DNA of 35,184 nt from Archangium lipolyticum (GTDB lineage Bacteria; Myxococcota; Myxococcia; Myxococcales; Myxococcaceae): assembly GCF_024623785.1 (NCBI RefSeq), contig NZ_JANKBZ010000059.1, positions 1 through 35,184 of the forward strand, in the 5' to 3' direction. A program made the position numbers and the translations under genes. Below, in pieces: positions 15,175 through 34,825 of the stretch (within the stretch, counting starts at the first letter, position 1; each line of letters begins with the position of its first letter). The notes under the pieces are model-generated. The model searched no databases. It was not told where the DNA came from and saw only the letters and a list, made by a program, of their open reading frames with translations.

Positions 15175-15288
15175 CCGTCGGTCATGGGCTCGGTGGCTTG
15201 GAGGTCAGGCGCCTGGAGGGCGGGGGTGTGGTAGAGGCCGGACTCTTCCTGGCGCTCGCGCGCCACTCCCGTTGAAGGTTGACCTCCC

Positions 15289-16233: not shown

Positions 16234-16274
16234 GGGGCCGAAGGGCGCTGGATGCCATAGAACGCAGGGCGTTT

Positions 16275-16727: not shown

Positions 16728-16847
16728 TCTCCTCCCCTCTCTTGATAGGAAACATAGTGATGACCCTTCCCATTCGAAGCTCGCCGGAGTGGCCTCTAAA
16801 CTTGCTTCGGCTACAGACGCAACCAGGAATGACGCTGGCCGTCGGCT

Positions 16848-17303
16848 CTATGCATTGTTCATGGTGGCGGCCATCTTCAGTGCGTTCCAGAAACCGAAGA
16901 ATGCCGCCCCTGCCTCAAGCTCTAGCTCCACCGCCTCTCCTCTTCGGAGCAGAATCTTCAGTCGATTAAGGGCCAGTTTTCCGTTTGAGCTTGAGGCCAG
17001 GGTTCCGTTGACGTGAGCGGCATCCACCGTCGCATCTTCAATCTCGCTCCAGGGAAGATGCAGGATGCCATCAGGTCTCCAGGTTATGACCTGCTCAGTA
17101 GTGAGTAGCACCCAATGTTCTGGATCTCGAAAGTGCGAAAGCACCGGGAGTTCCCCGCCCCGAACGGCAGCCATGTTGAGCAGGTTCGTGCGCACCTCCG
17201 CCGGGAAATCGTCGAAGGGGCGAGTCCACGTTCCTTCGCTTCCTGAGCGATAGAACTTCCGGAGGAGCCTCTGGCGCCTCGCCTCTGCGCTGAGACCAGT
17301 CAT
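16848..17303 (-). CDS. PH-like probable immunity protein of the lipoprotein toxin, 151 aa
   Basis: Its ATG overlaps the stop of the 520-aa lipoprotein gene (ATGA), the usual toxin-immunity coupling. Residues about 60-145 look like a bacterial PH-like domain: HWVLLTTEQVITWR, LPWSEIEDATVD, KILLRRGEAVELELEAG and a final amphipathic helix FFGFWNALKMAA. There is no signal peptide, so it would act in the cytoplasm, as expected for immunity to a toxin that enters the recipient cell. The role as immunity protein is inferred from position. Confidence 0.65.
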   Translation of the reverse strand: MTGLSAEARRQRLLRKFYRSGSEGTWTRPFDDFPAEVRTNLLNMAAVRGGELPVLSHFRDPEHWVLLTTEQVITWRPDGILHLPWSEIEDATVDAAHVNGTLASSSNGKLALNRLKILLRRGEAVELELEAGAAFFGFWNALKMAATMNNA

Positions 17304-20180: not shown

Positions 20181-20274
20181 CAGCGCCTCCGATGGATGAC
20201 GCCCACTCTATCGGGTGGCCCTGACAAATCCGGACAGACTGGACAGCGCGGGCAAAAGGCGCCTCGTGTCGTAG

Positions 20275-20487
20275 GGTCCGCAACCCAACCACACGGGTCG
20301 CCTGGAGCAGCTCGATGCACCCCCGGTGCAGAAGGAGAGCGCATGCCACTTTGCACGGTCCGATCCCTCCTCGCAGGAGTCGTCGCGACCGCGCCGCCTG
20401 CTGCGCACCCTGCGCCAGTTGGACGACAAGCAGCTCAGCGCTGTCGGTTACATGGCGCGCAGCCTCGTGCAGCCCGAGGCCCGTTAG
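20275..20487 (+). pseudogene. Decayed C-terminal remnant of an XRE regulator
   Basis: The open frame ends RPRRLLRTLRQLDDKQLSAV then GYMARSLVQPEAR and a TAG. This aligns with the C-terminal module of the XRE regulators at 11.5-12.3 kb (VRRLLRSVRRLKPRQLTALS; FLRTARRMKPRQLRALRG). The helix-turn-helix part is missing and an in-frame TAG at 20272 closes the frame upstream, so only the tail survives. It converges on the intact minus-strand XRE gene, whose stop overlaps its end. Confidence 0.55.
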
Positions 20488-20861
20488 CTCACGTCGGAGA
20501 GGTGGGTACCGGCCGTCTCCAGCAGCTTGCGCAAGAGCGCCAACCGCTCCGGCGGCCACCCCTGAAGGACGTGGATGATGCGGCTCAACTCGGGGTGCTC
20601 ACCGGCCGCGGGCGGAGGGGCCGGCGCCGTTACCTCGTGGGCCTGGGCACCCAGGGACAGGAGCACGTCCGAGGAGATGGCCAGGGTCTCGCAGATGCGC
20701 CGCAGCGTGGGCACGCTGGGCACCATGGCGCCCCGCTCGACCCGGCCGTAGACGCCGGGCTTCAGGCGCACCTTCTTGGCCACCTCCGCCTGCGTGAGGC
20801 CCAGCCGCAGGCGAGCAGTTCGAGCAGCTTCCCCCAGAGCGTGTCGCAGCTTCTCGTCCAT
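20484..20861 (-). CDS. XRE family regulator 4, 125 aa
   Basis: Helix-turn-helix at residues about 10-70 (RLRLGLTQAEVAKKVRL, VYGRVERGAMVPSVPTLRRICETLAISSDVLL), then a Pro/Ala linker and a C-terminal helical module (LSRIIHVLQGWPPERLALLRKLLE) most like regulator 3 at 12.4 kb. It lies just outside the SitA-like cassette. No obvious partner gene, so it may regulate the cassette or be left over from the same duplication that made the tandem set. Confidence 0.85.
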   Translation of the reverse strand: MDEKLRHALGEAARTARLRLGLTQAEVAKKVRLKPGVYGRVERGAMVPSVPTLRRICETLAISSDVLLSLGAQAHEVTAPAPPPAAGEHPELSRIIHVLQGWPPERLALLRKLLETAGTHLSDVS

Positions 20862-21042
20862 GGTGTGCGTCTACTGCAAACAGCGGAAGGCCGCGACGAA
20901 CAACTCCCAGCACGTGCCAGGACATCTGTCGCTGGCCAGCATCAACATTGTGCGAGGTGCTCTATCCAGCCCCCCGAGTAGGCATGGAGGCTGCGCGCAG
21001 AATGCAGCAGAATGTCGTTTTGCCTCGATACGGGAGTGCGAC

Positions 21043-21624
21043 ATGACGGCTTACGACCATTTCGCGGGGGACTTTGGCGGACATACTGCGGATTTCTCCG
21101 ACGCGCTGACGCTCTTCGAGGTCGGGGCATTGCTCGCCCGAGGCGCCAGAGCCGTCGGATGCGAGTTCTTCACGGAGTTCCCGCCCAGCCCCACTGCGGG
21201 CCGACGTGGTCGGCGTATAGATTTCGTTTGGGCGGTGCGGGCGCACCAGCCAGAGAACGGACGCCGCTGGCTTCCTCTTGCTGCTTTCGAGGTTGAGGGG
21301 CTCGATGTTCCGGCGGGCAGCCTTGAGCAGGATGTGGAGCGACTTGCGGAACTGGCCCACGGAGAGGAGATCCCGATGTCGGTGATTCTCTACCGTACGA
21401 CGGAAACCGGCTGGATGTTCTGGAATCCCGGCCCGGCTCCAAAGGCCCGGGAAGACCAGCTCCTTGAGCTGGTGCGCTCCAGACTCGCGGCGCGTCCACC
21501 TCCGTGCGGCTCAGTCGAAGCAGTGCTGGATCGTGAACTCCTGCAAGGCAAACGACTTGCACGCTGGGTCGACCAAGCACGGACGCGGTTCGAGGCTCTT
21601 CGTCTCGCTGGTCGATTGGCGTGA
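21043..21624 (+). CDS. Small PD-(D/E)XK-like protein, 193 aa
   Basis: Residues 55-90 read GRRGRRIDFVWAV then a turn and LPLAAFEVEG: an Asp60 followed by an E83-V84-E85 strand. This is the D ... ExE variant of the restriction-endonuclease fold seen in small uncharacterised bacterial proteins that have a DVVW ... AFEVE core. Later segments (SLEQDVERLAELAHG, IPMSVILYRT) continue the alpha/beta pattern. CGGGAG seven bases upstream sets the start. The usual Lys is replaced by Glu, so nuclease activity is uncertain. It lies at the edge of the defence genes and may belong to them. Confidence 0.55.
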   Translation: MTAYDHFAGDFGGHTADFSDALTLFEVGALLARGARAVGCEFFTEFPPSPTAGRRGRRIDFVWAVRAHQPENGRRWLPLAAFEVEGLDVPAGSLEQDVERLAELAHGEEIPMSVILYRTTETGWMFWNPGPAPKAREDQLLELVRSRLAARPPPCGSVEAVLDRELLQGKRLARWVDQARTRFEALRLAGRLA

Positions 21625-21811
21625 TCCGTCGCTCTCTCGTGCATTTGTCCTTCAAGCCAACCGCTACTGCACCTGCTATGGCCACCGCTCGTGGCCCAGA
21701 GCCTCGTTGCTCAGTCAGGGGCGAGCAACTGGTCACCACCAATTCGCTGTTGTCGGCGGAACTGGCGAGCTTCCTGGAGCACAATAAGATGAAGGGCAGG
21801 GAAGCAGATAA

Positions 21812-22699
21812 TTAGATGGTGTCCCCGAACAGGAGATCGGGCAGCGGAGTGGTTTCAACCCAGAGCCCCGCCTCGCGCTGAACGTAGTACTGGCACAAAG
21901 TAACGATCTTGCTGTGGTCGCCCAGGCGAACTCTTTGGCGCTCAACCTCCGTCCTCCCAGCGATAGCATCACTACTAAAGCCAGAACTGGAGAGCAGAAG
22001 CCCTGCCGTCGCCGAATTCTTGACCACCACATCGAAGAAACTCTTCAGAATCCTTCGTCCAGGTCGGGATGGTGGAGTCCAATGCTTGATTTCAACGAGG
22101 AAAGTGATGGGTTTTCCATCCTTCGCGCAAGAGAGTTCCAGGTCGAACCCGCCGTCCTGTGCTAGCGGGGTGAGCCGCGTCACGAATCCCAGGCCCTCGA
22201 AAACCTCTCGGAGCACCCTTTCGAGTTCAGGCCATTCCAATTCCATAAGTCCGTCTGGGAATTTTGCGATCCATTTGGCGATTTCCCGCATAGTCTTTCG
22301 CAAGATGAACTCTCCGTAGCCTGGACCGTATGGGGCAGGAGCGTCCTCGTCTTGCTGCTGGGGCGAAACCTCCGCTAGGTATCTCTTGAGTCGTGGCAGA
22401 GCGCCGTGCCGTGACCACACGATTCGTCCCTCCGCCTCAAGCCGATCCATGTTTTCGCGGCTGAAGCGCCAGACTCGCCCGTTGGGGGGAAGCTGCCCAC
22501 GCCACTCAAATCGGAGCGGGGACGTGGTGCCCGGTGCAGTGAGAGCACACTGAATGTACGGACCCTTCGGGTCGTCATCCGGATTCCTGAACCTGTCAGC
22601 CGCGAGTTTGCTACGGCTCTTGACATTCGTGTTTGACACTGGACTGCCTCCCCTCAGTGAGTCTGCCATGAAGGAACCGGTGAAGGCGACGAGTGGCAC
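21812..22699 (-). CDS. Mrr-type restriction endonuclease with a Mod-like recognition segment, 295 aa
   Basis: Residues about 39-112 (NPDDDPKGP, PPNGRVWRFS, GRIVWSRHG, RLKRYLAEVS) closely match residues 269-348 of the Mod methyltransferase at 26.6-28.5 kb (NPDNDPRGP, PPPGRFWRIS, GRIWWGPTG, SIKRYLSEVS). In Mod this part lies between the two catalytic motifs, where target recognition is expected. No methyltransferase motif is present here. Residues 155-285 form an Mrr-like PD-(D/E)XK nuclease with Asp186 (GGFDLEL) and E203-I-K205 (FLVEIKHW). The start is unclear (GTG 22699 or ATG 22669; neither has a good ribosome binding site). Probably a stand-alone restriction nuclease, perhaps modification-dependent. 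Confidence 0.75.
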   Translation of the reverse strand: MPLVAFTGSFMADSLRGGSPVSNTNVKSRSKLAADRFRNPDDDPKGPYIQCALTAPGTTSPLRFEWRGQLPPNGRVWRFSRENMDRLEAEGRIVWSRHGALPRLKRYLAEVSPQQQDEDAPAPYGPGYGEFILRKTMREIAKWIAKFPDGLMELEWPELERVLREVFEGLGFVTRLTPLAQDGGFDLELSCAKDGKPITFLVEIKHWTPPSRPGRRILKSFFDVVVKNSATAGLLLSSSGFSSDAIAGRTEVERQRVRLGDHSKIVTLCQYYVQREAGLWVETTPLPDLLFGDTI

Positions 22700-22877
22700 A
22701 GCTCAGCGTGAAGAACAGCCCGTCGAACTGGACAATTTGCTGGCGATTAGCACCTTGAAGTGCGCCTGAGCCCACGTGCCTTGAGTTGGTGCTGCGGCGC
22801 GTGCACCTCGAGGCCAAAAAATGCCGGGGGCTCGTGGGCCACCACGGCATGCAGCTGCGAGAGGGCGGGGGAGTGCG

Positions 22878-23489
22878 TCAGGGGGCGCGCGTCTCGGGCG
22901 CGGTGCTCCCGTTGCCCTTCCGCCTGCTGCCATTGTGGGAGGGCTTCTTGCCGGTCTCCTCCTGCCTGCTCGGGGTCGTGGCGGCGGTGCGTTGACGCCC
23001 GGGGACGGCAAAGACCTCTCCCCGGTCCTTCCCGTGGAGGAACTGCTCCACCGCATCCTGCCGGCGCGCCAGGTCCGCTACGGCCTCACGCAGCTCCTCG
23101 CCGAGAGCTCGCGTTTCGCTCCGCTGAGCGTCGAGCTGGCCCTCGAGTTCGGCCATGGAGGTGATGAGTTCCGCCTGCGAGTCGTTCAGGATCACCCTGA
23201 AGTCGCTCACCGTCTTCGTGTTCATGGCGGTGAGCTTATCCAGCAGCTCCGCATGCTTCTTATCCAGCTCGTCCGGGGTCAGCTGGCCGTGGAGGTTCTT
23301 GAGCGACTCGGCCGTCTCGAGCACCTCGTTCCGGTCGCGCGGCGTGGTGTCGAGGCCGCCGTCATCGAGCCACCGGCTGATGCGCTCGCGCTGGGCATAG
23401 ACAAAGCCACCGAGGGCGGTTGCTGCGGCACCCAGAGTGAGTTTGCCGAAATGGTTGATGATAAAGGGGGGCAGGGGAATTACGGCCAT
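22878..23489 (-). CDS. Membrane-anchored coiled-coil protein, 203 aa
   Basis: One N-terminal hydrophobic segment (LTLGAAATALGGFVYAQ, about residues 16-32) is followed by a long charged coiled coil (about 55-150: VLETAESLKNLHG, LDKLTAMNTKTVSDF, QLDAQRSETRALGEELREAV) and a Lys/Ser/Gly-rich disordered tail. No family recognised. It lies 99 bp behind the Res gene in the same direction and may belong to the restriction operon. An AGGAG seven bases before the ATG sets this start; the ATG at 23534 in the same frame is an alternative. The ribosome binding site is covered by a hairpin. Confidence 0.6.
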   Translation of the reverse strand: MAVIPLPPFIINHFGKLTLGAAATALGGFVYAQRERISRWLDDGGLDTTPRDRNEVLETAESLKNLHGQLTPDELDKKHAELLDKLTAMNTKTVSDFRVILNDSQAELITSMAELEGQLDAQRSETRALGEELREAVADLARRQDAVEQFLHGKDRGEVFAVPGRQRTAATTPSRQEETGKKPSHNGSRRKGNGSTAPETRAP

Positions 23490-23534
23490 GCGGAAGCTCC
23501 TGGCGGAGGCCCAGGAGTCATTTCCTGGGCTCAT
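23490..23534 (-). promoter_or_regulatory. Alternative hairpins covering the coiled-coil gene ribosome binding site
   Basis: In the minus-strand transcript three segments follow one another: GCCCAGGA (23530-23523), TCCTGGGC (23516-23509) and CCAGGAG (23503-23497), the last containing the Shine-Dalgarno AGGAG. The middle segment can pair with either side: 8 bp with the first, 7 bp with the ribosome binding site. This is the layout of a translational switch. Confidence 0.4.
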
Positions 23535-23588
23535 GTGCTGATACCCACCAGCGCCTACGGATTTAGAAACCCCAGTGATAACCCCACT

Positions 23589-26500
23589 TTAGGTTGGCTC
23601 GACTTCGCTAAGGACCTGATCGAGCGTCCGCGCGACGGTGTACTTGAGCGGCGGCTCGCTGACGCCAAGGCTGGCGAAGTGTGCCTTGCCACATTCGATT
23701 TTCGCGCGCTCCTTGTCGCGGAGGTCGTTCACGAACAGGTCGCCCTTGGTCTCGACCACGAAGTAAACCCGCTCGCCCTCATCGGTCTGGACCAGCACGG
23801 CCCAGTCCGGGTTGTACCCACCGAGAGGGGTGGGGACGGTGAACCAGCCTGGGAGCTTGGTGTAGACCTTCACCGCAGCGTTCTTCTCTAGCTGGTCGGC
23901 GAACGACGCTTCGACGTCCGAGTCGTAGACCACGTGGTCGTGTACTGACTTGGAAGCCGCCATCATGTTCTTGAGATAACCAGTAAGCTCCTTCTCCTCG
24001 AAGAGCTGCTGGGCGTAGTAGTGCTCGTCGCCGAGTCGCTGGTACTTGATCCCCTCTACCACCGCGAGCTGCTTGCACCCGTTGATTGCGTGGGCCACGA
24101 AGTCGATGAACTGCTGCGGGTTTCGCTTGAAGTCGTCCAGCCGACCGCTCTCAGTCAGCACCCGATAAATCGTCCGCCGGGTGAGCTGGGTCCGGTCTTG
24201 CAATTCGGTGAGGATGTCGGGCAACTCGACCTGGGCTTCCTCAAGGAACACCGGAGCAGAGGTTTGGGTCTCCTTCGCGTCCACGCCCGCTTTACCGATC
24301 ACGAGCTCCGCCGTCGTCCATAGGAGCCGCGCCTTTGGCACACGTGGTGCCTCGCGGACGGACCGCACACAATCTGCGATGAGCTTCTCGTTGTCGAACT
24401 CCAGCCGGTAGGTGGTCCGGTGCTTGATCCGGTCCCAAAGCGCCCTGAAATCCTCGCCAAGGAGAACTTCGCGCCGGGTGCCAATCGGTTTGCGCAGGTC
24501 GGCGTCCTTGATTTCCAGCCGCCCCGCGAGTTTGCGGAGGACTTGCTCGATCTCCTTCTGGATGGCCTCGAACTCCGGCGGCAGTGACAGGGACCCATCC
24601 TTCAGCGCCTTGCGAAGCGAGTCCTGCACCTTTCCGCGCGTGTCGATATGGCCGGCCGCACGCAGGTGATCCCATACCGCCTTCGACTTTTCCGCGCCTA
24701 GCAGAGCCGGTCTCCCGGCCTCTCCCTTCACAGAGATCGTCGCGAATTGGTGCGCTTCGACGATGCCGAAGCGGATGCCGGTGTCAGCCTCGATTTCACG
24801 CTGCAAGTTCTCTGCGAACTCTTGGTAGCTCTCAGTGGCGACGACCGTGAGAGTATTAACGTCAAAGCCGCGAACGCGCTCTCCCTTCTGGTTCACGCAC
24901 AGCCGGAGCCCCCGTCCGATGGTTTGGCGGCGTTCGCGTTCGGTTCGGATGTCTCGCAGAGTGCAGATCTGGAAGACGTTGGGGTTATCCCAGCCTTCGC
25001 GCAGCGCCGAGTGGGAGAATATGAATTTGAGCGGTGTCTCCAGGCTCAACAGCCGCTCCTTGTCCTTCATGATCAGGTTGTAGGCCCGCTCCGCGCTGTC
25101 CCGGCTCTGCTGGTTGTTCTCGGCGGTGTCAGTCCAGCCGCCGTGTTTGTCGACGGAGAAGTACCCGTCGTGGATCTCGCTGGCGTCCCGCGAGAGGTCG
25201 ACCTCCTTGAATAGCGTGACATAGTCCGGGCGCGAAGCCATGCGCCGATATTCTTCCTCGAAGATCCGTGCGTAGGGTCCCTTGATTGCCGTGCCCTGCG
25301 CATCGTACTGCCGGTAGCGGTCCACCTGATCGATGAAGAAAAGGCTGAGAACCTTGATCCCCTGGGGCCGGAGCCTCTTCTCCTTATCGAGGTGCTCTTG
25401 GATGGTTCGTCGAATCATCTGCCGCTGCATCTCCATCGGGTCGACGTCGCCAAAGGCTTGGCCGGGCGTCAGCCAAACCGGGTCGATGCCCGGCACTCGG
25501 AGTTCCAGCAACTTCTGTCCGCGTCCGGCACGGATCTCGCCTATCCGGTGGTCGCGGTAGAGCGGTCGGCTCGTGGCCAGCTCGAGATCGTCGCCGTCTT
25601 CGACGGTGAGCTCGACGCGCCGAACGCCGCCCGGTCGCTGCGCATCCACCTCGATCTTCGCGGTAACCCCACCGCGGTTGCTCGCAACGGAGACGAGCTT
25701 CACGTACGGTCGGTTGTGGGCGCCGTCGACGGTGGCCGAGGCGACCTCAATCTGTTTGACAAGTTTCTGTTCGTAGGCGTCGATCGCGTCGAGCCGGTAG
25801 ACCATGTGGTGCTTATCGACATGCGTCGCCGAGTAGCGGAGTGTGCACAAGGGTTTCATTCGCGCGAGAGCCTGTCGGCCTCGGCCGTCGAGTCCGCCGT
25901 CCACGCTCTGCGGTTCATCAACGATGAGGATGGGCCTGGTGGCGCTGATGAGGTCGATGGGTTTCTCGCCGCCGGTCTTCTCGCTCGGGCGGTACATCAC
26001 ATTCTTCGACTTCTCGCGACGGCGTTGTTCGTCGGCTTCCTCCGCGACGGCCTCGGCCTCATCGCCGAACCGGCTCATGGCGCCGACGGTGACGATCATG
26101 ATCTGGATGTGTGGGCTGGTGGCGAAATTGCGGACCTGTCCAAGCTTCCCCGAGTCGTAGATGAAGTAGTCGAACGGCGTTCCCGCGTAGATACTGCGGA
26201 AATGGTCCTCGGTCATCTGAAGGGACTTGTAGACCCCCTCCTTGATGGCGATGGACGGCACGACAATTACGAACTTGGTGAAGCCGTAGCGCTTATTCAG
26301 CTCGAAGATGGTGCGCAGGTAGACGTAGGTCTTCCCGGTGCCGGTCTCCATTTCCACGGTGAAGTCGCCAGACTCGAGTTCTTCTGCGGGGCGTAGGCCG
26401 TTGCGGAGCTGGACGTCCTTGAGGTTCTCCAGTACCTGGTCCGGGAGCAATTGGAGTCGGTTGCCGGTTCCCTGTTCATTCTCCATGCCGGGGAGGAGCG

Positions 26501-26630
26501 CGGCACCGCCGAGCGCCCCGCGCGTCACAGTGAACGCGGTGCGACAGACCTCCTGACCGCGGAACAGGTCACAGACCCCGTTGATGGCGCGGAGCTGGTA
26601 GTCGAGGTTCGGTTCGAAGTGTAGCTTCAT
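23589..26630 (-). CDS. res: Type III restriction enzyme Res subunit, 1013 aa
   Basis: Superfamily 2 helicase plus nuclease. Walker A METGTGKTY (94-102), motif II DEPQ (238-241), motif V/VI region SALREGWDNP and RRQTIGRGLRL. The C-terminal PD-(D/E)XK nuclease has GGYNPDWAVL with Asp942 and VVETKGD with E960-T-K962. This is the Res subunit that, with Mod, translocates on or cuts DNA carrying unmethylated sites. Length is normal for Res. It starts 12 bases after the Mod stop with AGGAG upstream and is the last enzyme of a four-gene operon. All key motifs are intact. Confidence 0.92.
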   Translation of the reverse strand: MKLHFEPNLDYQLRAINGVCDLFRGQEVCRTAFTVTRGALGGAALLPGMENEQGTGNRLQLLPDQVLENLKDVQLRNGLRPAEELESGDFTVEMETGTGKTYVYLRTIFELNKRYGFTKFVIVVPSIAIKEGVYKSLQMTEDHFRSIYAGTPFDYFIYDSGKLGQVRNFATSPHIQIMIVTVGAMSRFGDEAEAVAEEADEQRRREKSKNVMYRPSEKTGGEKPIDLISATRPILIVDEPQSVDGGLDGRGRQALARMKPLCTLRYSATHVDKHHMVYRLDAIDAYEQKLVKQIEVASATVDGAHNRPYVKLVSVASNRGGVTAKIEVDAQRPGGVRRVELTVEDGDDLELATSRPLYRDHRIGEIRAGRGQKLLELRVPGIDPVWLTPGQAFGDVDPMEMQRQMIRRTIQEHLDKEKRLRPQGIKVLSLFFIDQVDRYRQYDAQGTAIKGPYARIFEEEYRRMASRPDYVTLFKEVDLSRDASEIHDGYFSVDKHGGWTDTAENNQQSRDSAERAYNLIMKDKERLLSLETPLKFIFSHSALREGWDNPNVFQICTLRDIRTERERRQTIGRGLRLCVNQKGERVRGFDVNTLTVVATESYQEFAENLQREIEADTGIRFGIVEAHQFATISVKGEAGRPALLGAEKSKAVWDHLRAAGHIDTRGKVQDSLRKALKDGSLSLPPEFEAIQKEIEQVLRKLAGRLEIKDADLRKPIGTRREVLLGEDFRALWDRIKHRTTYRLEFDNEKLIADCVRSVREAPRVPKARLLWTTAELVIGKAGVDAKETQTSAPVFLEEAQVELPDILTELQDRTQLTRRTIYRVLTESGRLDDFKRNPQQFIDFVAHAINGCKQLAVVEGIKYQRLGDEHYYAQQLFEEKELTGYLKNMMAASKSVHDHVVYDSDVEASFADQLEKNAAVKVYTKLPGWFTVPTPLGGYNPDWAVLVQTDEGERVYFVVETKGDLFVNDLRDKERAKIECGKAHFASLGVSEPPLKYTVARTLDQVLSEVEPT

Positions 26631-26642
26631 TGCAGGGCGCTC

Positions 26643-28499
26643 CTAGAGGCTGGTGACCTTGGACAGGCCGTGCTGTTCGAGGATGGCCGCGAGGTTCGAC
26701 TTGGCCACGTCGTCGGCGAAAGCGCTGTCGCGGAAGACACAAGTCGTCTCGCCGACTGGGGCGAGCACCTTGTGCCACTCGGCAATGCCCAGCGCGAGCC
26801 GCTCGACGTCCTTGCGGGCGATCTTCTCTTCGACGCAGACCATCAACACGCCGCCGCCAATGCTGTGCACCGTCTTTCCTGCAATGGTCCGGTGCTCGAT
26901 GGGGACACACAGATCCAGCCCGAGCTTGAGGAGAACTTCGTAGAGGATATCGTCTGGGCTACGGTCCTCCTTGATATGCTCCAAGTTGTCGAGGAGTGAT
27001 TTCTTGAGGTTGTCTCGGTTTGGCTCCCACCCACGGATGTTCGAGCTGTCGAGCTTGAACACGCGAAAGCCGAGATCGCCCGAGAGAGTTGTGGCGTCTT
27101 GCTGAATCTTCTTGCCTGCGCGGCGCAGGCGCTCTTTTGAGATCGCTGCGATAGTTGCTAAATCGCTTCTTCCCGTGGGCTCAGGCATTTGGACGAGGAT
27201 GTAGCGTCGATTGCCTCCCTCCGTTGCGTTCAGCCGCATCACCGCATCGCCCGTCGTGGCCGAACCCGCAAAGAAGTCGAGGACGATGTCTGACGAGCTG
27301 ACCTCAGTTCCCAGCCGCAGCATTCTTTCAATGAGAGCTGTCGGCTTTGGCGTGTCGAAGGATTCAGTGTCCGGGAAGAGAGCTCGAAGCTCGTTCTTCG
27401 ACGTGCGATTGCTGCCGACCTCCTCTTTCCGCCAAAGGGTCCGAGGAATCAAATCCGAGACCTCAGAAAGGTATCGCTTGATACTCGGCCGGGCTTCTCC
27501 AGTCGGCCCCCACCAGATGCGTCCATCTGCATCAAGTTCCCGTAGCTTCTGTTCAGAGATACGCCAAAACCGGCCTGGCGGCGGGCTGAAGGTTCGGCCA
27601 CTTGGCCCCTTAACGCTGTATTGCCCCTTTGAGTAGGGCTTATTCGCGTAGGGGTCTCCAGGAAGCCATGGGCCCCGAGGATCGTTGTCAGGATTGGCGT
27701 AAATTGAGTTTGCTTCATCCGTTCGTGGGAGTCGCGTAGGAGCCCACGAAGGATCTCGCGAATACACTAGCACAAACTCGTGGTCCTCCGAGAATTGTCT
27801 TGCCGAATTTCGCGGTGAGTCAGCCTTCTCCCAGATAGCAGTGGCTACGAAGTTTTCTTCTCCAAAGACTTCGTCCATCATGTACCGAAGAGTGTGAACC
27901 TCGTGATCATCGATCGACACGAAGATTACGCCGTCTTGGGCAAGAAGGTTCCGCGCCAACTTCAGCCGCGGATACATCATATTCAGCCAATCGGTATGAA
28001 ACCGTCCGGACGCCTCGGTGTTGGACGTGATCTTCCGTCCACCCTCCACCTGCCCAGTCAGCTCCAGGTAGTTCTTGATGTTGTCCTGAAAGTCGTCCGG
28101 ATAAACAAAATCCTTGCCAGTGTTATACGGCGGATCGATGTAGATGAGCTTGACCTTTCCGGCATAGCTCTTCTGCAACAACTTCAGGACTTCCAGGTTG
28201 TCACCCTCAATGAAGAGGTTCTGCGTGGTGTCCCAGTCCACGCTCTCCTCGGGGCACGGACGCAAGGTCCCGGTCGACGGAGTCAGCGCGAGCTGGCGGG
28301 CTTGCCGCTTTCCGTGCCAGTAAAGCCCGTACTTCTCCTCGCGCTCGTCCACAGATCCCCCGAGGACCTGCTTAAGCACGTCGAAGTCGATCTTCCCCTC
28401 CGCGAACGCCTCGGGGAATAGCGTCTTCAGCTTCGCCACGTTCTCGGCCACGAGGTCAGCGGATCGAGTCGTCGGGTCATCCACGGTGAGCTTCCTCAT
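26643..28499 (-). CDS. mod: Type III Mod adenine-specific DNA methyltransferase, 618 aa
   Basis: Beta-class amino-methyltransferase: motif IV DPPY (122-125) precedes the AdoMet motif LDFFAGSATTGDAV (about 406-419). The typical Mod N-terminus is present (SADLVAENVAKLKTLFPEAF, then EEKYGLYWHGKRQAR). The part between the motifs (about 215-350) is the expected target-recognition region; its DNA (27.4-27.9 kb) is visibly AT-richer than the ends of the gene, a sign of domain exchange. It would mark host sites and guide Res. The ATG at 28499 has AAAGAGG upstream; a GTG at 28520 overlapping the previous stop (GTGA) is an equally possible start. Confidence 0.92.
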   Translation of the reverse strand: MRKLTVDDPTTRSADLVAENVAKLKTLFPEAFAEGKIDFDVLKQVLGGSVDEREEKYGLYWHGKRQARQLALTPSTGTLRPCPEESVDWDTTQNLFIEGDNLEVLKLLQKSYAGKVKLIYIDPPYNTGKDFVYPDDFQDNIKNYLELTGQVEGGRKITSNTEASGRFHTDWLNMMYPRLKLARNLLAQDGVIFVSIDDHEVHTLRYMMDEVFGEENFVATAIWEKADSPRNSARQFSEDHEFVLVYSRDPSWAPTRLPRTDEANSIYANPDNDPRGPWLPGDPYANKPYSKGQYSVKGPSGRTFSPPPGRFWRISEQKLRELDADGRIWWGPTGEARPSIKRYLSEVSDLIPRTLWRKEEVGSNRTSKNELRALFPDTESFDTPKPTALIERMLRLGTEVSSSDIVLDFFAGSATTGDAVMRLNATEGGNRRYILVQMPEPTGRSDLATIAAISKERLRRAGKKIQQDATTLSGDLGFRVFKLDSSNIRGWEPNRDNLKKSLLDNLEHIKEDRSPDDILYEVLLKLGLDLCVPIEHRTIAGKTVHSIGGGVLMVCVEEKIARKDVERLALGIAEWHKVLAPVGETTCVFRDSAFADDVAKSNLAAILEQHGLSKVTSL

Positions 28500-28516
28500 G
28501 CGCGCCTCTTTACTAG

Positions 28517-29272
28517 TCACAGTCTCTTCCTCAAAGCGGCGTATTCCGCCTCAAGCTGTTTGAGCTTCACGTTCAGGTCCACCAGCCGCCGGAGTTGTGT
28601 CTCGCCTCTCGCGGCGGTCCGCAGCGCCTTCATCTCCGCTTCCAACCTGGCGCACGCATCGAGTGCCTCGTGCCGCGCTTGCGCATCTCTCGGCGTCGTC
28701 GCGCGGCTGAACACGCCCGTTATCATGGCCGCCCGATATGCGACCACGGTTTCCATCCACCCTTCGTATACCGTCCACAGCGACTCGGCTGCTTGGCGCG
28801 CCAGTGGCAAAGCTTCCAGGAATCCCTCCACCACGGCCGGCGGGGTTCCGTCGCCCATCTCGGCGATGGTCAAATCGCCGTCCATCACCCAGTTCCCGGC
28901 TTTCGCCTGTGACCACCGTTTGTGCGCGAGCGACAGGCACAGGCGAGGTGCTTGCTCGCACACGAGGAGTACTGGATACGGGATCGCCCGATGCACCAGT
29001 TCCATCAGCCGGTCAGCCTTCCCCTGTGGCCGCATCGACAAGCTCAGCACCGCGAGTTCTTCGTACGTCCGCTCCCCATCCGTGAACCCGGCGATCCCGC
29101 AGTTGGAGGGCTTGAGGGTGGCGACCCACGTGATTTCTTCGACGCCCTCCGTGACCAGCCGCCGGTCCGAAGACGACGCAATGTTCTCTGACAACATCTT
29201 CTTCGGCACTCTCCGGGGTTGCACCGCGTCCCCGGGTAGGCCGAGCGCGCCGATCACCTTCTCCGGGGTCAC
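28517..29272 (-). CDS. DUF4391 family protein, 251 aa
   Basis: Starts VTPEKVIGALGLPGDAV with KVPKK-like RRVPKKMLSEN and EEITWVATLKPSNCGI, then YEELAVLSL and IPYPVLLV: the DUF4391 pattern. The C-terminus is a coiled coil (LEAEMKALRTAARGE, LNVKLKQLEAEYAALRKRL). Function unknown. The GTG start overlaps the helicase stop (GTGA), and its own stop overlaps a GTG of the Mod gene, so it is tightly coupled in the middle of the restriction operon and likely forms part of the complex. The longer frame reaching 29524 only overlaps the helicase gene. Confidence 0.85.
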   Translation of the reverse strand: MTPEKVIGALGLPGDAVQPRRVPKKMLSENIASSSDRRLVTEGVEEITWVATLKPSNCGIAGFTDGERTYEELAVLSLSMRPQGKADRLMELVHRAIPYPVLLVCEQAPRLCLSLAHKRWSQAKAGNWVMDGDLTIAEMGDGTPPAVVEGFLEALPLARQAAESLWTVYEGWMETVVAYRAAMITGVFSRATTPRDAQARHEALDACARLEAEMKALRTAARGETQLRRLVDLNVKLKQLEAEYAALRKRL

Positions 29273-32200
29273 TCGGGCCCACCCGGCAGGATGACCACGA
29301 ACGCGACGACCTCGAAGTCGTCGCTCCCGGCGAACTCGCCCTTTCGCGTCTGGGTGCCGCCGGGCTTGAATAGGCTGGCCACCGCACGCTCCTCGCCGCG
29401 TCCCACCACGCTTCCCACCGCAGTTGCCAGCAGGCGCTGTGCGTGACGCATGTCCTCGCCCGCCTTCGTCGTCCGATCGTATCGGGCACAAGCGCCGGCG
29501 TCCGGCAGGTCTTTGCCCACGCACGTCCGCTTGAGCCGGTCGAGGATCCGTTTTGCCTGTGGGTAGGGCAGGAGGACCGTCCCGTCTTCGCTCACGTGCA
29601 CAAGGTAATGCGGCGACAACGGGTAGCTCCCGTCCGCGAGTGACTCGGCGGCGTCTCCCTCTGCGCGCAGGCAGAATATGATCCCCGGGGGCACCTCGGA
29701 CTCCAATGAGGTCGTCACCGCGCTTGCACCCAGAGGCAGGCTCTCCAGCGCGTCCGGTTGTGTCCGCCCGAGCTCAGCGAGGTCGATTCGGAAGTCGTTC
29801 AGGGTGAGATCGGTGATGGAAACGCCCGTAGATAGGTCCTCCAGATCGATCACCGCGTCCTGAAGCCGGAGCAGTTGCTTGCGCCGGTACTCCAGGTCGT
29901 TCATCCCGTTCGCGCCCCGCGACTCGATTAGGTTCTCTTCGCCGGTAGCGGACACGTCGAGCAGCACCATTCGGCCGCTCACGCGCTGTTCGAGGTTGAT
30001 GTACTCCTCAAGTTCCATGTTCGGCCAGAAGTTGACGAGCTGGATCCTTGCGTTCGGCGAGCCCAGTCGGTCGATGCGTCCGAACCGCTGGATGATGCGC
30101 ACCGGGTTCCAATGGATGTCGTAGTTGATGAGCCAGTCGCAGTCCTGGAGGTTCTGGCCCTCCGAGATGCAGTCCGTGGCGATCAGGAGATCAATCTCCC
30201 CCTCGGCCGCGTCTTCCATGGATCTTTCACGCGAGCGCGGAGAGAACGCGGTTAGAATCGACCCGAGATCCTTCCCCACTGAGGGCAGGGTACTTTGATT
30301 GCTTCCCGTCCCGGTGACGAGTGCGGATTGGAGCCCCAGTTCCGCCTTCGCCCAGGGCGAGAGCTGATCGTACAGATACCGAGCGGTGTCCGCGAACGCG
30401 GTGAAGACGATCACCTTCCGGTTCTGGCCGTTGATCGGGCGCTCGCATTTGGCGGCGATCACCCGCTTCAGCTCGGAGAGCTTGGCGTCCCGCTGCGGGC
30501 TGACGTCCTTCGCCGCCGAGAGCAGTGTCATCAGCCTGTTGCGGTCCTCCTCCAAGTCCTGCTTCCAGCGAACGACGTCTACGTCCTTCAGCAGTACTTT
30601 CACTTTCCGCCCGGCGACGAGGCCCTCGAACTCCGGATCCTCGAGATCCACCTCGCGGATGTCCAGCGCTGGCGACTCGTTCGCATGGCTCTCGATACGC
30701 CCGATGATTGTGTTGACCGCTTCGAGCTGGCGCTCCACGGTGAGTGCGAACGACACCACCGAGCTCTCCATCCGCTTGAGCACGTTGACCCGGAGCAGAT
30801 TGACAAGGCTCGTTTCGCGATCCTGCTGCTTGAAGAACCCCTTCCCGCCGCGGACCTCGCGCCTGTACCGCTCCTCGTAGTCCGCCTGCTTGTGCGGCAG
30901 GATGTATTGGAGCGGTGCGTACGAGGCGAGGTTGAGCTTCCGGATTTCGGTGTTGATGACGTGGATGCGCGGGAACTTCGCCGCCCGGTCCACCTCGGCC
31001 TTGATGTTGATAGGCCGCAGGCGCTCCGGGAACTTCCCAGTTTCGTCCGTGCCGTAGTACCGCTCGATGTGCCTCCGCGACCGGGCGATGGTCAACAGGT
31101 CGAGCAAGGCGAAGTAGTCGAATCCCAGCATCTCCACCAGCCGTGTTGGCGTCCGCTCCGCCTCATCCAGCTCCAGCCAACGATTGAACTGCTTTTGCGC
31201 CAGTCGTGTGGTGGTCTCGATGCTCGGAATGCCGTGATCGAACAGTGCGCCGTCATTCCCCTCGGTCACGAAGGCGATCTGGTTCTTCAAGTCCGCCAGT
31301 CGGTTGTTGACCGGGGTCGCCGATAGCATGAGCACGCGGGTCTTCACCCCCTCACGGATAACCTTCTGCATGAGCCGCTCGTAGCGGGTGACGCCGCCTT
31401 CCTGTGGGCTCAGCTTGTTGCGGAAGTTGTGCGACTCGTCGATCACTACCAGGTCGTAGTTTCCCCAGTTAATGTTACGAAGGTCGATGTCGCCGGACAT
31501 CCCGCTCTCGCGCGAGAGATCGGTGTGGTTCAGCACGTCGTAGTTGAACCGATCCGCCGCGAAGAAGTTACGCCGGTCGTTAGCGCGGTAGAGGGTCCAG
31601 TTGTCCCGCAGCCGCTTCGGGCATAGGACCAGGACGCGATCATTGCGCAGCTCATGGTACTTGATGATTGCCAGCGCCTCGAACGTCTTACCGAGCCCCA
31701 CGCTGTCCGCGATGATGCAGCCCCCGAAGCGGTTGAGCTTGTCGATGGCCCCCACCACGCCATCACGCTGGAACTTGTAGAGCCGCTTCCACACACCCGT
31801 GTTGCGGATGCCCGTGGCGGCCTTGATCACCTGATCTTCGTCCAGGGTATCGCCGCGTCCCTCGAAGAGCGTCTGGAGGATCCGCGCGTAGACCAGCGAC
31901 GGCGGGTGGTGCGCTGCCACGCGCTCGAGCTGCTCGACCAACGCGCGGTCTGGCGCCTTGCCTCCCTCGAGCTGGGACCACTGGAACTCGAGCCAGGCCG
32001 AGAAGTGTGACCGATCCTCGGGGGTGTCCAGATCGTGGATCAGCCCCAGCGGATTGCCAGGCGTGAGTCCGAGCCCATCGGTCGTCAACGACAACGCCCC
32101 CGAGACGGCTTGCACCGGCTGCGCGTCCGCGTCGCGGAGCACCAGCGCGCCCTGAGGAATTCTTCCCTTCGCGCGCCGGACCTCTGCCTTGCGTGCGATC

Positions 32201-32466
32201 CACTCCAGGCACCGCCGCGCCAGCCACCGCGCTTGCAGCCGGTTGCGCGCTGCGCGATCCGCTTCGTGCCCCAGCAGAGCGCAGTCCAGGTCCTCCCGCG
32301 GCAGCAGTAGGCGCGCCCGCTCGATCGCGAAGAGCTCCGCGTGCAGGGCTTCGAACGCGAAGATCGAGAAGTCAGAGGTGACCGCGTCGATGTAGTTGCC
32401 CGGCCGCAGCCACGGACGGATGAGGTCGATGACCCGCTCGTTCCCAGCGTTACGGATGATCTTCAT
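29269..32466 (-). CDS. SNF2-type helicase with degenerate PLD-like N-terminus, 1065 aa
   Basis: Superfamily 2 translocase: Walker A ADSVGLGKTF (253-262), motif II DESH (343-346), motif III SATP (382-385), motif V ATDCISEGQNLQ and motif VI QRFGRIDR (793-800), as in SNF2/HepA-like proteins. The first 165 residues have the spacing of a phospholipase-D-like domain (GALSLTTDGLGL, then AWLEFQW) but lack an HxK motif, so this part is probably not catalytic. It is the first gene of the operon with DUF4391, Mod and Res. No classical ribosome binding site is seen. It may remodel or move DNA for the restriction complex. Confidence 0.9.
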   Translation of the reverse strand: MKIIRNAGNERVIDLIRPWLRPGNYIDAVTSDFSIFAFEALHAELFAIERARLLLPREDLDCALLGHEADRAARNRLQARWLARRCLEWIARKAEVRRAKGRIPQGALVLRDADAQPVQAVSGALSLTTDGLGLTPGNPLGLIHDLDTPEDRSHFSAWLEFQWSQLEGGKAPDRALVEQLERVAAHHPPSLVYARILQTLFEGRGDTLDEDQVIKAATGIRNTGVWKRLYKFQRDGVVGAIDKLNRFGGCIIADSVGLGKTFEALAIIKYHELRNDRVLVLCPKRLRDNWTLYRANDRRNFFAADRFNYDVLNHTDLSRESGMSGDIDLRNINWGNYDLVVIDESHNFRNKLSPQEGGVTRYERLMQKVIREGVKTRVLMLSATPVNNRLADLKNQIAFVTEGNDGALFDHGIPSIETTTRLAQKQFNRWLELDEAERTPTRLVEMLGFDYFALLDLLTIARSRRHIERYYGTDETGKFPERLRPINIKAEVDRAAKFPRIHVINTEIRKLNLASYAPLQYILPHKQADYEERYRREVRGGKGFFKQQDRETSLVNLLRVNVLKRMESSVVSFALTVERQLEAVNTIIGRIESHANESPALDIREVDLEDPEFEGLVAGRKVKVLLKDVDVVRWKQDLEEDRNRLMTLLSAAKDVSPQRDAKLSELKRVIAAKCERPINGQNRKVIVFTAFADTARYLYDQLSPWAKAELGLQSALVTGTGSNQSTLPSVGKDLGSILTAFSPRSRERSMEDAAEGEIDLLIATDCISEGQNLQDCDWLINYDIHWNPVRIIQRFGRIDRLGSPNARIQLVNFWPNMELEEYINLEQRVSGRMVLLDVSATGEENLIESRGANGMNDLEYRRKQLLRLQDAVIDLEDLSTGVSITDLTLNDFRIDLAELGRTQPDALESLPLGASAVTTSLESEVPPGIIFCLRAEGDAAESLADGSYPLSPHYLVHVSEDGTVLLPYPQAKRILDRLKRTCVGKDLPDAGACARYDRTTKAGEDMRHAQRLLATAVGSVVGRGEERAVASLFKPGGTQTRKGEFAGSDDFEVVAFVVILPGGPE

Positions 32467-33091
32467 CGAGGGGGAGCATTCTACGACGGGTCTCCTAGCT
32501 TTGTTAAATGCGGTTCAGCTAGCTCCGATACCTCCAGCCGCAGGACCCGGTTAGGGGAATACGATCCTGAAGCGGAGCGCATAAGAGGACTGGGAGCCCT
32601 TGGTGAGGGAGCGGGCTGGTAGAGAGTCCGCGGGAGGCGCTGACGAGCACCTCTCGGGCTGTGCGCTGGGCCGGTGGAACCGCCGTATGGCCCCAGGAGA
32701 GTCGGGGCACGTTGGCTCTCTACGGGGTTCCATCAGGCACATGAGCACTGCGGGCCGACCAGCCATCATCGCTTCGGTGTCGGAGGGCTTCCTTGTGCTC
32801 CAATGTACCCCTCCAGAGCAGATTCGGGGAGCGCCAGACGGCACATGATGGGGCGGATCAAGGCGAGGATCCCTAATAAAATCAATGCCATAGCGGGTAA
32901 AGGCGCGTCCTGCCCAGGAACGTCCACCGTCCTACCGTGGGTTCGATGCTTGCCTCCTCCTTCAGCGGGCCCAGTAATCCGCAGGGCTGCTGGGCCGCGG
33001 CCGCGAAGCTTGCGGGTCCACGAGATTCTCGGCTTTCGGCGCTCCTGCTTGGTCGCTAGGCTCGCGCCGCGTCCCACACCGAGGGGAAATG
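32467..33091. promoter_or_regulatory. Divergent intergenic region with a structured stretch
   Basis: This 625-bp region between the restriction operon (minus) and the GmrSD-like gene (plus) should carry both promoters. No credible gene. Between 32619 and 32723 the sequence is strongly self-complementary: outer stem GTAGAGAG / CTCTCTAC, inside it a CGGT-GGA-ACCG hairpin and a CCCC-AGGAGAGTC-GGGG hairpin. An AT-rich patch (CCCTAATAAAATCAATG) at about 32870-32890 is the best promoter candidate for the plus strand. Confidence 0.4.
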
Positions 33092-34825
33092 ATGAGCTAC
33101 AAGGCCAAGACTCTCGCCAGCCTCATCGAGGCCATCCAGCAGAACCAGCTGCTCCTGCCGCACATCCAGCGGCCATTCGTCTGGGAGCGAGATCAGATGC
33201 GTCGGCTCTTCGACAGCCTGATGCGCAACTATCCCATCCAGACCCTGCTCTTCTGGCGGACGAAGAGTCACATCAAGGCCCGGCGCTTCCTCACCACTGT
33301 CGAGTGGGATCCGGACCTGAGCAGGCACTACGACCGCGAGCGGAGCAAGGCGGGCGTCGACAAGATGTTCGTGCTCGATGGCCAGCAGCGCCTCCAGACG
33401 CTCTATGCACTCTTTGCCGGATCGGTCCGGAACGAGAAGCAGGCGGGTGCGGAGGAGGAGGCTTGGTTCGATCTCACCAGTGGCACCCAGGTGGACGCCG
33501 AGGGAGTTCTCTACCCGCTCCAGTTCTCCGCCGGCCCGCTGGAACTCCCCTGCTACCGCCTGCGAGACCTGCTGGAGAAGGATGCGCAGCAGAGCGCCTG
33601 GGACATCGGCGACCGAATCAACGCCGAACTCGATGGGCGCTTGCAGGAGTCCCCGGAACAGCAGTCCGCGCGGCGCAATCGCGTGCAGAAGAACTTGGCC
33701 ATGCTCTCCTCCCTCCTCCTGGAGGAGAAGTACTTCTGGATTGAGGAACTCGACGGAGTGAACAAGTCTCTGCCCTACGAGCGCATCCTGGAGATCTTCA
33801 TCCGGGTGAACTCCGGCGGCACCAAGCTGTCGTCCTCGGACCTGATGTTCGCGGCCATGAAGGAGGGGTGGGAGCAGGTCGAGGAGAACATTGAGGGCGT
33901 GGTGCATCTGTTGAACGAGGGGAAGCTCGAGTTCGACAAGACCTTCGCGCTCAAGTGCCTCGTGGTGGCCCATGGCCATAGTGCGGAACTGGGGCCCGAC
34001 AAGTTCGGTTCCCAGCAAGAGGAGGAGCAACTCCTGAAGAAGCTCTCCGACAACTGGCCTCAAGCGGAGAAGACCTTCGCCCAGCTTCGCGACTTCATCC
34101 GGCACGACTTGGCGCTCTATTCGGATAAGGTGATCCGCAGCTATTCCTGCTTCGTGCCTCTCTTCGACTACCTCTTCCACAACCCCGCCCCAGACGAGCG
34201 CAACCGCCGGTTGATGCGCGCCTATTATTACAAGTCCCAACTCTTCAACTGGTACTCGTCCCAGACCGACGGTCTCATCAACGTGCTGCACGGCATCGTC
34301 GGCAAGAAGCTCGCGGGATTCCCTCTGCCCGACATCAAAACGTACTTCCTCTCACGGGGATACACAGTGGAACTGGCGCAGGCGCACCTAACTGATATGC
34401 GGCTGCGATACATCGTGCTGAACCTTATCTACGTCGCGCGATTCGGGAGTAGCCCCTTCGACGTGAAGTACGAGGGCAACGAGCCGCAGATCGACCACAT
34501 CTACCCGCAGAGTTCCCTGCGCTCACAACTCGGGTTGGGCACGGTCGACATCAATCACCTCGGCAACTACCGCTTCATTGGAGCTAGGGAGAACCTGCGC
34601 AAGCGCGCTGAGAAGCCGGCCGAGTATTTCAGCCGTCTCGCGGCCGACAGCGTAGACATCTCCCGCCACCTACTCGTGACTGAGTTCTCGGACGACCCCA
34701 AGAAGCTGGCGTTCGACCGGCAGACCTACCTGAAGTTCCGTGAGCGCCGCCTCGAGGAGATTCTGAAGATCAGCGCGGAGGTGGTGAACGCGGAACTGGT
34801 GCCAGCGCCTCCTTCGGCCGCATAG
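33092..34825 (+). CDS. GmrSD/BrxU-like restriction protein (DUF262 + HNH), 577 aa
   Basis: N-terminal DUF262 domain: LLPHIQRPFVWERDQMRRL, then the nucleotide-hydrolysing motif VLDGQQR (94-100) and IRVNSGGTKLSSSDL. The C-terminal DUF1524-like HNH nuclease has QIDHIYPQ (His about 469), NHLGNYRF and ARENLRKR. This two-domain layout is that of GmrSD, BrxU and SspE, enzymes that cut modified DNA or sense modification with NTP hydrolysis. The ATG at 33092 is five bases after GAGGGG; the ATG directly before it (33089) is too close. It is transcribed divergently from the SNF2-DUF4391-Mod-Res operon and would complement it by attacking modified phage DNA (inference). Confidence 0.9.
   Translation: MSYKAKTLASLIEAIQQNQLLLPHIQRPFVWERDQMRRLFDSLMRNYPIQTLLFWRTKSHIKARRFLTTVEWDPDLSRHYDRERSKAGVDKMFVLDGQQRLQTLYALFAGSVRNEKQAGAEEEAWFDLTSGTQVDAEGVLYPLQFSAGPLELPCYRLRDLLEKDAQQSAWDIGDRINAELDGRLQESPEQQSARRNRVQKNLAMLSSLLLEEKYFWIEELDGVNKSLPYERILEIFIRVNSGGTKLSSSDLMFAAMKEGWEQVEENIEGVVHLLNEGKLEFDKTFALKCLVVAHGHSAELGPDKFGSQQEEEQLLKKLSDNWPQAEKTFAQLRDFIRHDLALYSDKVIRSYSCFVPLFDYLFHNPAPDERNRRLMRAYYYKSQLFNWYSSQTDGLINVLHGIVGKKLAGFPLPDIKTYFLSRGYTVELAQAHLTDMRLRYIVLNLIYVARFGSSPFDVKYEGNEPQIDHIYPQSSLRSQLGLGTVDINHLGNYRFIGARENLRKRAEKPAEYFSRLAADSVDISRHLLVTEFSDDPKKLAFDRQTYLKFRERRLEEILKISAEVVNAELVPAPPSAA

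What the first reader, a model, noticed from the sequence alone, without database searches (positions are those of the whole stretch)
22878..32466. SNF2 helicase - DUF4391 - Mod - Res operon with a membrane coiled-coil partner
A type III Mod/Res pair would suffice for restriction. Here it is preceded by a 1065-aa SNF2-type translocase with a degenerate PLD-like N-terminus and a DUF4391 protein, joined by GTGA overlaps, and followed by a membrane-anchored coiled-coil protein. The tight coupling suggests one multi-subunit machine with two different motors (SNF2 and Res). Neither DISARM (no DUF1998 pair) nor BREX (no PglZ or BrxC) fits. The role of DUF4391 and of the membrane anchor is unknown to me.
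Basis: partly seen in the sequence, partly recalled or inferred. Interest (0 to 1): 0.62.

Follow-up and report, generated by a model that had tools for sequence, protein, structure and literature searches.

The report
Type III restriction system, SNF2–DUF4391 variant
A four-gene variant of a known DNA-restriction system, found in many bacteria, in which the usual cutting and marking pair is regularly preceded by a second DNA motor and a small protein of unknown function that probably work with it.

Summary
The order is widely conserved: of 69 loci with at least 6.5 kb downstream of SNF2, 69 have DUF4391, 69 Mod and 67 Res. Anchored on DUF4391 instead, SNF2 lies upstream in 49 of 50 loci with room. 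The reverse does not hold: 49 of 97 related Res genes show no DUF4391 upstream (some cut by contig ends), and nine of 19 opened have Mod-Res only. The coiled-coil gene is not a component: it is absent from the 85 other loci and occurs in congeners without DUF4391. A helicase upstream of Type III mod genes is published (Eco86II, PMC8259958), but the one in that strain is of another SNF2 type, with no DUF4391. The SNF2 N-terminus has a phospholipase-D fold without its active site. Most likely SNF2 and DUF4391 form an accessory motor working with Res; that mechanism is inferred. Verdict: new variant of a known kind.

The parts
29269..32466 (-). SNF2-family motor, 1065 aa, with an N-terminal PLD fold lacking the HxK active site (modelled residues 1-235) and an intact helicase core (about 229-816)
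28517..29272 (-). DUF4391 protein, 251 aa: alpha/beta domain followed by C-terminal long helices; GTG start overlapping the SNF2 stop (GTGA)
26643..28520 (-). Type III Mod, 625 aa, beta-class amino-methyltransferase; GTG start overlapping the DUF4391 stop (GTGA)
23589..26630 (-). Type III Res, 1013 aa, SF2 motor plus C-terminal PD-(D/E)XK endonuclease

Best explanation
[quoted passage not shown] Shown: Mod and Res are Type III subunits by sequence, and SNF2 with DUF4391 is a regularly linked pair encoded upstream of them in a fixed order across many phyla. Inferred: Mod recognises and methylates a short asymmetric site and, with Res, restricts unmethylated DNA as EcoP15I does. SNF2 and DUF4391 form a sub-complex; the dead PLD domain serves as a dimerisation or DNA-binding platform, and DUF4391, through its helical C-terminus, couples the SNF2 motor to the Mod-Res complex, chiefly to Res. 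The SNF2 motor then moves along or remodels protein-covered invading DNA so that Type III complexes meet or stay engaged, which makes restriction more efficient or widens its target range. The module is an enhancer, not a requirement for methylation.
For: Gene order and strand in 67 of 69 loci with room, from Pseudomonadota, Bacillota, Bacteroidota, Actinomycetota and several other and candidate phyla (record titles, origins). Six plasmid places were opened from SNF2 matches: the five at 39-70% identity all have the four genes, one with an IS element between Mod and Res and one with further methylase pieces (Listeria DUF4391 by Pfam); the sixth, at 30.7%, is told under evidence against. SNF2 upstream of DUF4391 in 49 of 50 loci with 600 bases of room, the exception having a GmrSD-type gene in between. 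GTGA overlaps. Partial correlations of pairwise distances over 57 loci: SNF2-DUF4391 0.59, Mod-Res 0.50, SNF2-Res 0.38, DUF4391-Res 0.21, SNF2-Mod 0.10, DUF4391-Mod 0.07 (n): two co-varying pairs, linked through Res although SNF2 and Res are the outermost genes. PLD nuclease domains hold the SauUSI dimer together (PMC7913695, abstract). The EcoP15I motor remodels nucleoprotein contacts to start sliding (PMC11142916, abstract).
Against: No complex was predicted or assayed. 49 of 97 Res places counted show no DUF4391 upstream (some are cut by contig ends), and nine of 19 opened have Mod-Res only with ample sequence upstream. Four plasmid places opened from Res matches have no window-type pair. 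On the Res tree some rows without the pair lie very near rows with it (L158 beside L157, L230 beside L027), though both look like decay (an IS element before Mod in L158; only a Mod fragment in L230). For Eco86II the helicase was not needed for methylation and was not detected in the partly purified enzyme (PMC8259958, passages), although that helicase is of another type. A distant relative of the SNF2 protein on a Planktothrix plasmid (30.7% identity) stands beside a Type IIG-like methylase, with no DUF4391, Mod or Res annotated. Two of 69 loci (L047, L084) show no Res. The distance correlations are not corrected for shared ancestry or for joint transfer of neighbouring genes.
Confidence: 0.5

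Rival explanations
1. SNF2-DUF4391 is a self-protection or control module: a remodeller that strips stalled or mis-targeted Mod-Res from the host chromosome (restriction alleviation), not a part of the attack.
For: The SNF2 protein lacks the PLD HxK site in 62 of 64 aligned rows, window included. Co-variation is with Res rather than Mod. That some SNF2 proteins strip bound proteins from DNA is recalled, not from a call.
Against: Mod-Res systems without the pair exist, so self-protection does not generally need it. No direct evidence.
Confidence: 0.2
2. Two defence arms share one mark: Mod methylation is read both by Res and by a separate SNF2-DUF4391 effector, as in systems where a SNF2 protein and a methylase work without Res.
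For: The SNF2 core resembles DrmD, BrxH, DpdE and ZorD. A distant relative sits beside a IIG-like methylase. Mod and Res form a pair of their own in the distance analysis.
Against: No surviving HxK in the window SNF2 and no nuclease match for DUF4391; of 69 loci with room only L047 and L084 show no Res; SNF2 co-varies with Res more than with Mod.
Confidence: 0.17
3. Ordinary defence-island co-location without functional coupling.
For: The window has other defence-like genes nearby: a GmrSD-type gene and an Mrr fusion; half of the operons (34 of 68 with Res) hold further ORFs, many of them defence-type.
Against: Fixed order and strand in 67 of 69 loci, 4-base overlaps, and 49 of 50 in the DUF4391-anchored test.
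Confidence: 0.03

Closest known systems
Three-gene Type III systems with a 5' helicase-like ATPase: Eco86II (E. coli NCTC86) and BspHIV (PMC8259958, passages read)
   Same: A helicase-like gene upstream of Type III mod and res; the paper reports the association in more than 500 genomes.
   Different: The SNF2-Mod-Res locus of NCTC86, which I take to be Eco86II, has 20 bases between SNF2 (963 aa) and Mod, so no DUF4391; its SNF2 aligns with the window type only over the helicase core. A relative of it (Rhizobium, L159) has DrmD as best PADLOC match, the window type has C3a139. Which helicase families make up the paper's 500 genomes I could not check.
EcoP15I Type III restriction-modification
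   Same: Mod and Res are homologous to the EcoP15I subunits (PDB 4zcf: Mod E 1.7e-59, Res E 3.1e-64).
   Different: Two further conserved genes, SNF2 and DUF4391.
SauUSI (PLD nuclease and SF2 motor in one protein)
   Same: The N-terminal domain has the PLD fold (Foldseek E 2.2e-5 to SauUSI), followed by an SF2 motor.
   Different: PLD active site lost in the window; encoded next to a separate Mod-Res.
PADLOC model C3a139 'HKD+Snf2' (PDLC01075)
   Same: Best PADLOC match of the window SNF2 (E 4.1e-107) and of the E. coli and Listeria plasmid members.
   Different: The model names one protein; the PADLOC paper PMC8565338 does not contain the name, and DUF4391 has no PADLOC match.
DISARM class 1 (DrmD SNF2)
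   Same: SNF2 core related to DrmD (158 bits).
   Different: Below the curated DrmD cut-off (610 bits); no DUF1998 match in the genes scanned. That class 1 DISARM has DrmD and a methylase is recalled.
Type-2 BREX-related systems (PMC12839542, passages only)
   Same: An HKD nuclease with a Swi2/Snf2 helicase working with an N6 methylase is described there.
   Different: DUF3780 is given as specific to them; the passages do not mention a Type III Res, and DUF4391 is not in the paper (one search lists one other paper only).

Membership tests
Type III restriction-modification | Mod: beta-class amino-methyltransferase with DPPY and FxG motifs, homologous to EcoP15I Mod | tested here: met
Type III restriction-modification | Res: SF2 motor plus C-terminal PD-(D/E)XK nuclease, homologous to EcoP15I Res | tested here: met
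Type III restriction-modification | Mod2Res complex, one-strand methylation of an asymmetric site, ATP-dependent cleavage | not testable with these tools
   needs biochemistry or methylome data
Helicase-containing Type III systems of PMC8259958 (Eco86II class) | SNF2 gene immediately 5' of mod, of the Eco86II helicase type | tested here: not met
   DUF4391 lies between SNF2 and Mod; the NCTC86 SNF2 aligns only over the helicase core; its locus has no room for DUF4391. Identity of that locus with Eco86II is inferred from strain and gene order.
DISARM | DrmD above the curated cut-off | tested here: not met
   158 bits against 610
DISARM | a DUF1998 protein (DrmB) in the operon | tested here: not met
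   no such match in the seven genes scanned
BREX | PglZ and BrxC present | tested here: not met
   no such match in the seven genes scanned
SauUSI-type PLD-helicase nucleases | intact HxK PLD active site | tested here: not met
   V109/R111 in the window; HxK in 2 of 64 rows
SauUSI-type PLD-helicase nucleases | PLD fold N-terminal to the motor | tested here: met
   Foldseek to SauUSI E 2.2e-5
Known fold for DUF4391 | match to a solved structure | tested here: inconclusive
   0 of 412 Foldseek matches at E 0.001 or better; VIA rows cover mainly residues 190-251

The most novel reading that the evidence does not exclude
A two-motor Type III restriction complex: an SNF2 dimer, held by its dead PLD domain and tethered by DUF4391, docks on Res and converts the passive sliding of Type III enzymes into driven long-range movement, so that cleavage no longer depends on two suitably oriented sites meeting by diffusion.
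Probability: 0.18. Interest if true: 0.75.

Novelty: new variant of a known kind. Interest (0 to 1): 0.5.

Why it matters
DUF4391 occurs in 34 of 398 and 23 of 398 sampled genomes of two large phyla (each count includes the centre genome, which was known to have it), and nearly every locus with enough sequence shows the same four-gene system. That gives an unstudied Pfam family a context that can be tested, separates two kinds of helicase-bearing Type III systems, and makes it possible to ask why a restriction system with one motor would keep a second.

Tried and rejected
Rejected: the coiled-coil gene as a component. Rejected: DISARM and BREX membership. Rejected: chance co-location. DUF4391 fold: no Foldseek match at E 0.001 or better in PDB or in viral models; VIA rows cover mainly the C-terminal helices; a profile search of PDB sequences gave nothing below E 0.02. 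That absence says nothing on novelty of the fold. The N-terminal domain of DUF4391 was not predicted alone, and no complex could be predicted.

Literature: DUF4391 is in 1 paper of the library, not on defence by its title and the start of its abstract; PF14335 in 0. Searches joining SNF2 or helicase terms with Type III terms, ARMADA/DISARM terms and insert-gene terms were judged from their listings; among these only PMC8259958 was seen to describe a helicase upstream of Type III mod. The library holds open-licence papers only. Papers seen: PMC8259958, PMC12839542, PMC12458937 and PMC8565338 as passages; PMC11142916 and PMC7913695 as outline and abstract.

The order test used profiles trained on the same loci. 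In the DUF4391-anchored set (56 loci) L107 and L131 come from the two centre genomes, which were chosen through SNF2, and L152 and L154 are one gene. In one search places were retyped and second pieces and short fragments left out: 25 of 26 and 36 of 37 DUF4391 places, 43 of 49 and 54 of 65 Res places; one fragment so dropped is the start of Res beside the DUF4391 of G434. DUF4391 of L137 stands at a contig start with no Mod in the 1.5 kb downstream: undecided. The Res tree is a FastTree of 81 rows out of 114 loci given; Res of the Eco86II kind (L163, L165, L167, L168) fell below the length or score limit. Insert ORFs are mechanical; 42 were passed to Pfam, chosen by eye from the 58. The distance test used the 57 loci with all four proteins long enough; an L049 exclusion written into changed nothing, as L049 was not in the set.
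Full report
What is in the window. The window is a whole 35,184-base contig (C59) of a 12.6 Mb genome. On the minus strand, in order, lie SNF2 (1065 aa), DUF4391 (251 aa), Mod (625 aa) and Res (1013 aa). The SNF2 stop and DUF4391 start, and the DUF4391 stop and Mod start, overlap as GTGA; Mod and Res are 12 bases apart. Pfam gives DUF4391 PF14335 (E 1.4e-58), N6_N4_Mtase for Mod, and ResIII plus RE_endonuc for Res. Mod and Res are homologous to the EcoP15I subunits. Catalytic and motor motifs are intact.

The SNF2 protein. Its best PADLOC model is C3a139 'HKD+Snf2'; it is far below the curated cut-offs of DrmD and the other NCBIfam equivalogs listed. A model of residues 1-235 (mean pLDDT 88) matches PLD-fold proteins, first SauUSI (E 2.2e-5), then human BJ-TSA-9, BfiI and Nuc. 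Where HxK is expected from the spacing to the conserved glycine, the window has V and R; 12 of 64 aligned rows keep the H and 2 keep HxK. So 'degenerate PLD-like' is right; a few relatives still resemble the active form.

Conservation from the SNF2 side. A search with an alignment of six SNF2 proteins gave 80 loci from named records, the best of 580 relatives; five loci of the window's phylum and the window were added: 86. In 69 with at least 6.5 kb downstream, DUF4391 is present in 69, Mod in 69 and Res in 67, same strand and in this order; no Res was found in the stretches held of L047 and of L084 (Methanobrevibacter). Across all 86, 68 show Res: 61 with the simple order, 6 with two Mod hits, 1 with two DUF4391 hits. 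On plasmids, 101 records carry a relative of the SNF2 protein at E 1e-60 and 45 a DUF4391 relative. Six places found by SNF2 were opened: five, at 39-70% identity, have the four genes, with DUF4391 unannotated in Listeria but matched by Pfam at E 1.5e-8; the sixth, Planktothrix at 30.7%, has a Type IIG-like methylase instead. On a plasmid of the archaeon Methanomethylovorans, SNF2, DUF4391 and Res matches lie in order on one strand within 10 kb; Mod was not checked there. Copies of the E. coli plasmid operon at 95% identity or more occur in 10 of 5,426 complete E. coli genomes, nine of them over 80% of the length.

Conservation from the DUF4391 side. This lessens the bias of choosing by SNF2. 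DUF4391 is in 6 of 195 genomes of the window's phylum, the window's own included, in 34 of 398 of the phylum of a Clostridium and in 23 of 398 of that of a Pseudomonas, centre genomes included. Of 56 loci fetched there, 50 have 600 bases of room upstream, and 49 of these have SNF2; in the other a GmrSD-type gene lies in between. Mod lies within the 1.5 kb fetched downstream in 44 of 53 with room. Res lies within 12 kb downstream on the same strand for 48 of 61 places counted; of the 13 others 6 were opened and none contradicts the order.

Conservation from the Res side. Only 48 of 97 Res places counted have DUF4391 upstream; some of the rest are cut by contig ends. I opened 19 of the 49: three have a DrmD-type SNF2 and Mod, one has a remnant of the window-type SNF2 with Mod, nine with ample upstream sequence have Mod-Res only (two of them, L236 and L237, with far-off Res), four are short of sequence, and two (L230, L238) lack a clear complete Mod. 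On a Res tree the four-gene label needs 8 changes against a shuffled mean of 14.0, 0 of 500 as low; rows without the pair sit beside rows with it on short branches, for example L158 beside the Listeria L157 and L230 beside L027 and L093. Both look like decay. So the dependence is largely one-way: the pair goes with Mod-Res, but Mod-Res does not need the pair.

A second, published class. PMC8259958 (passages) reports a helicase-like ATPase 5' of mod in Eco86II and BspHIV, with close neighbours in more than 500 genomes; it was not needed for methylation, and its peptides were not seen in partly purified Eco86II. In E. coli NCTC86 I found SNF2 (963 aa), Mod and Res with 20 bases between SNF2 and Mod, which I take to be Eco86II; the paper gives this strain one putative Type III system. 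Its SNF2 aligns with the window type only over the helicase core. A Rhizobium locus (L159) has a DrmD-type SNF2 upstream of Mod, a DUF262 gene and Res. The published association is therefore, for Eco86II, of a related but different kind; the paper does not mention a DUF.

Accessory genes inside the operon. 34 of the 68 loci with Res carry further ORFs of 100 aa or more, 58 in all: 35 between Mod and Res, 15 between DUF4391 and Mod, 8 before DUF4391 (mechanical ORFs, some surely spurious). Of 42 passed to Pfam, matches include DUF1016_N (5 members, 4 with YhcG_C), GmrSD_N (4), RhuM (3), AAA_21/AAA_15 (2), Schlafen AlbA (2), PLDc_2 (2), and DarT, Macro, Fic and S_4TM (1 each). The operon has pockets that accept other defence-type genes.

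The coiled-coil gene. No homologue was found in the 85 other loci. Matches occur in 9 of 59 related genomes including its own, with several copies in the congener G004; 4 of the 5 congeners have one, and none of the 5 has a DUF4391 match. In G004 the window's left flank (matches within 12689-20350, 88-92% identity) is followed after about 70 bases by the coiled-coil gene and then by other sequence. In G027 a homologue lies near BrxB- and DUF6079-type genes. It looks like a resident of variable sites, not a part of the restriction system.

How it may work. The pairwise distances of the four proteins in 57 loci, after removing what the others explain, link SNF2 with DUF4391 (0.59), Mod with Res (0.50) and SNF2 with Res (0.38), DUF4391 with Res less (0.21), and hardly Mod with SNF2 (0.10) or DUF4391 (0.07), although DUF4391 and Mod are neighbours (not corrected for ancestry). 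This suggests an SNF2-DUF4391 sub-complex that meets Res. DUF4391 is predicted with high confidence (pLDDT 97) as an alpha/beta domain plus long C-terminal helices, with no clear relative among solved structures; I infer an adaptor. In SauUSI the nuclease domains hold a dimer together (PMC7913695, abstract). I therefore favour an accessory motor that helps Mod-Res on invading DNA (0.5) over a self-protection remodeller (0.2) and a second effector reading the same mark (0.17).

Known or new. Type III membership of Mod and Res is met on sequence. I saw no description of the SNF2-DUF4391 addition in the papers that my searches listed or that I read in part. It is a new variant of a known kind, widespread and testable.

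Noticed in passing
window 21812-22699 (-): ORF that joins a Mod-like segment (residues about 26-111) to an Mrr-type nuclease domain (PF04471, E 2.8e-15). In plasmids 48 records match, none over 80% of it; a Halobacterium gene annotated as restriction endonuclease matches the Mod-like part.
   Followed up: partly
window 33089-34825 (+): Divergent GmrSD_N/DUF262 gene (PADLOC HEC-05, E 7.3e-70) upstream of the operon; genes of this type are also found inside four-gene operons elsewhere.
   Followed up: partly
window about 20350-23564; L259, L260, L263: Apparently variable chromosomal site: the left flank is conserved in a congener, where a coiled-coil gene follows it after about 70 bases; another homologue lies near BrxB/DUF6079 genes in a family member.
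   Followed up: partly
L159, L163, L165, L167, L233, L235, L241: A separate class with a DrmD-like SNF2 upstream of Mod-Res; relatives of this SNF2 are on 50 plasmid records, mostly Salmonella and Klebsiella.
   Followed up: partly
L012, L034, L045, L063, L075, L076, L084: Two or more Mod-like ORFs in one operon, which might mean a spare specificity subunit; some may be frame breaks.
   Followed up: no
L040 16024-17761: Two inserts between Mod and Res; DarT and Macro domains were each found once among the 42 inserts scanned and by their sequence starts I place them here.
   Followed up: no
L162 8410-13992: Planktothrix plasmid: a distant relative of the window SNF2 directly followed by a Type IIG-like methylase instead of DUF4391-Mod-Res.
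   Followed up: partly
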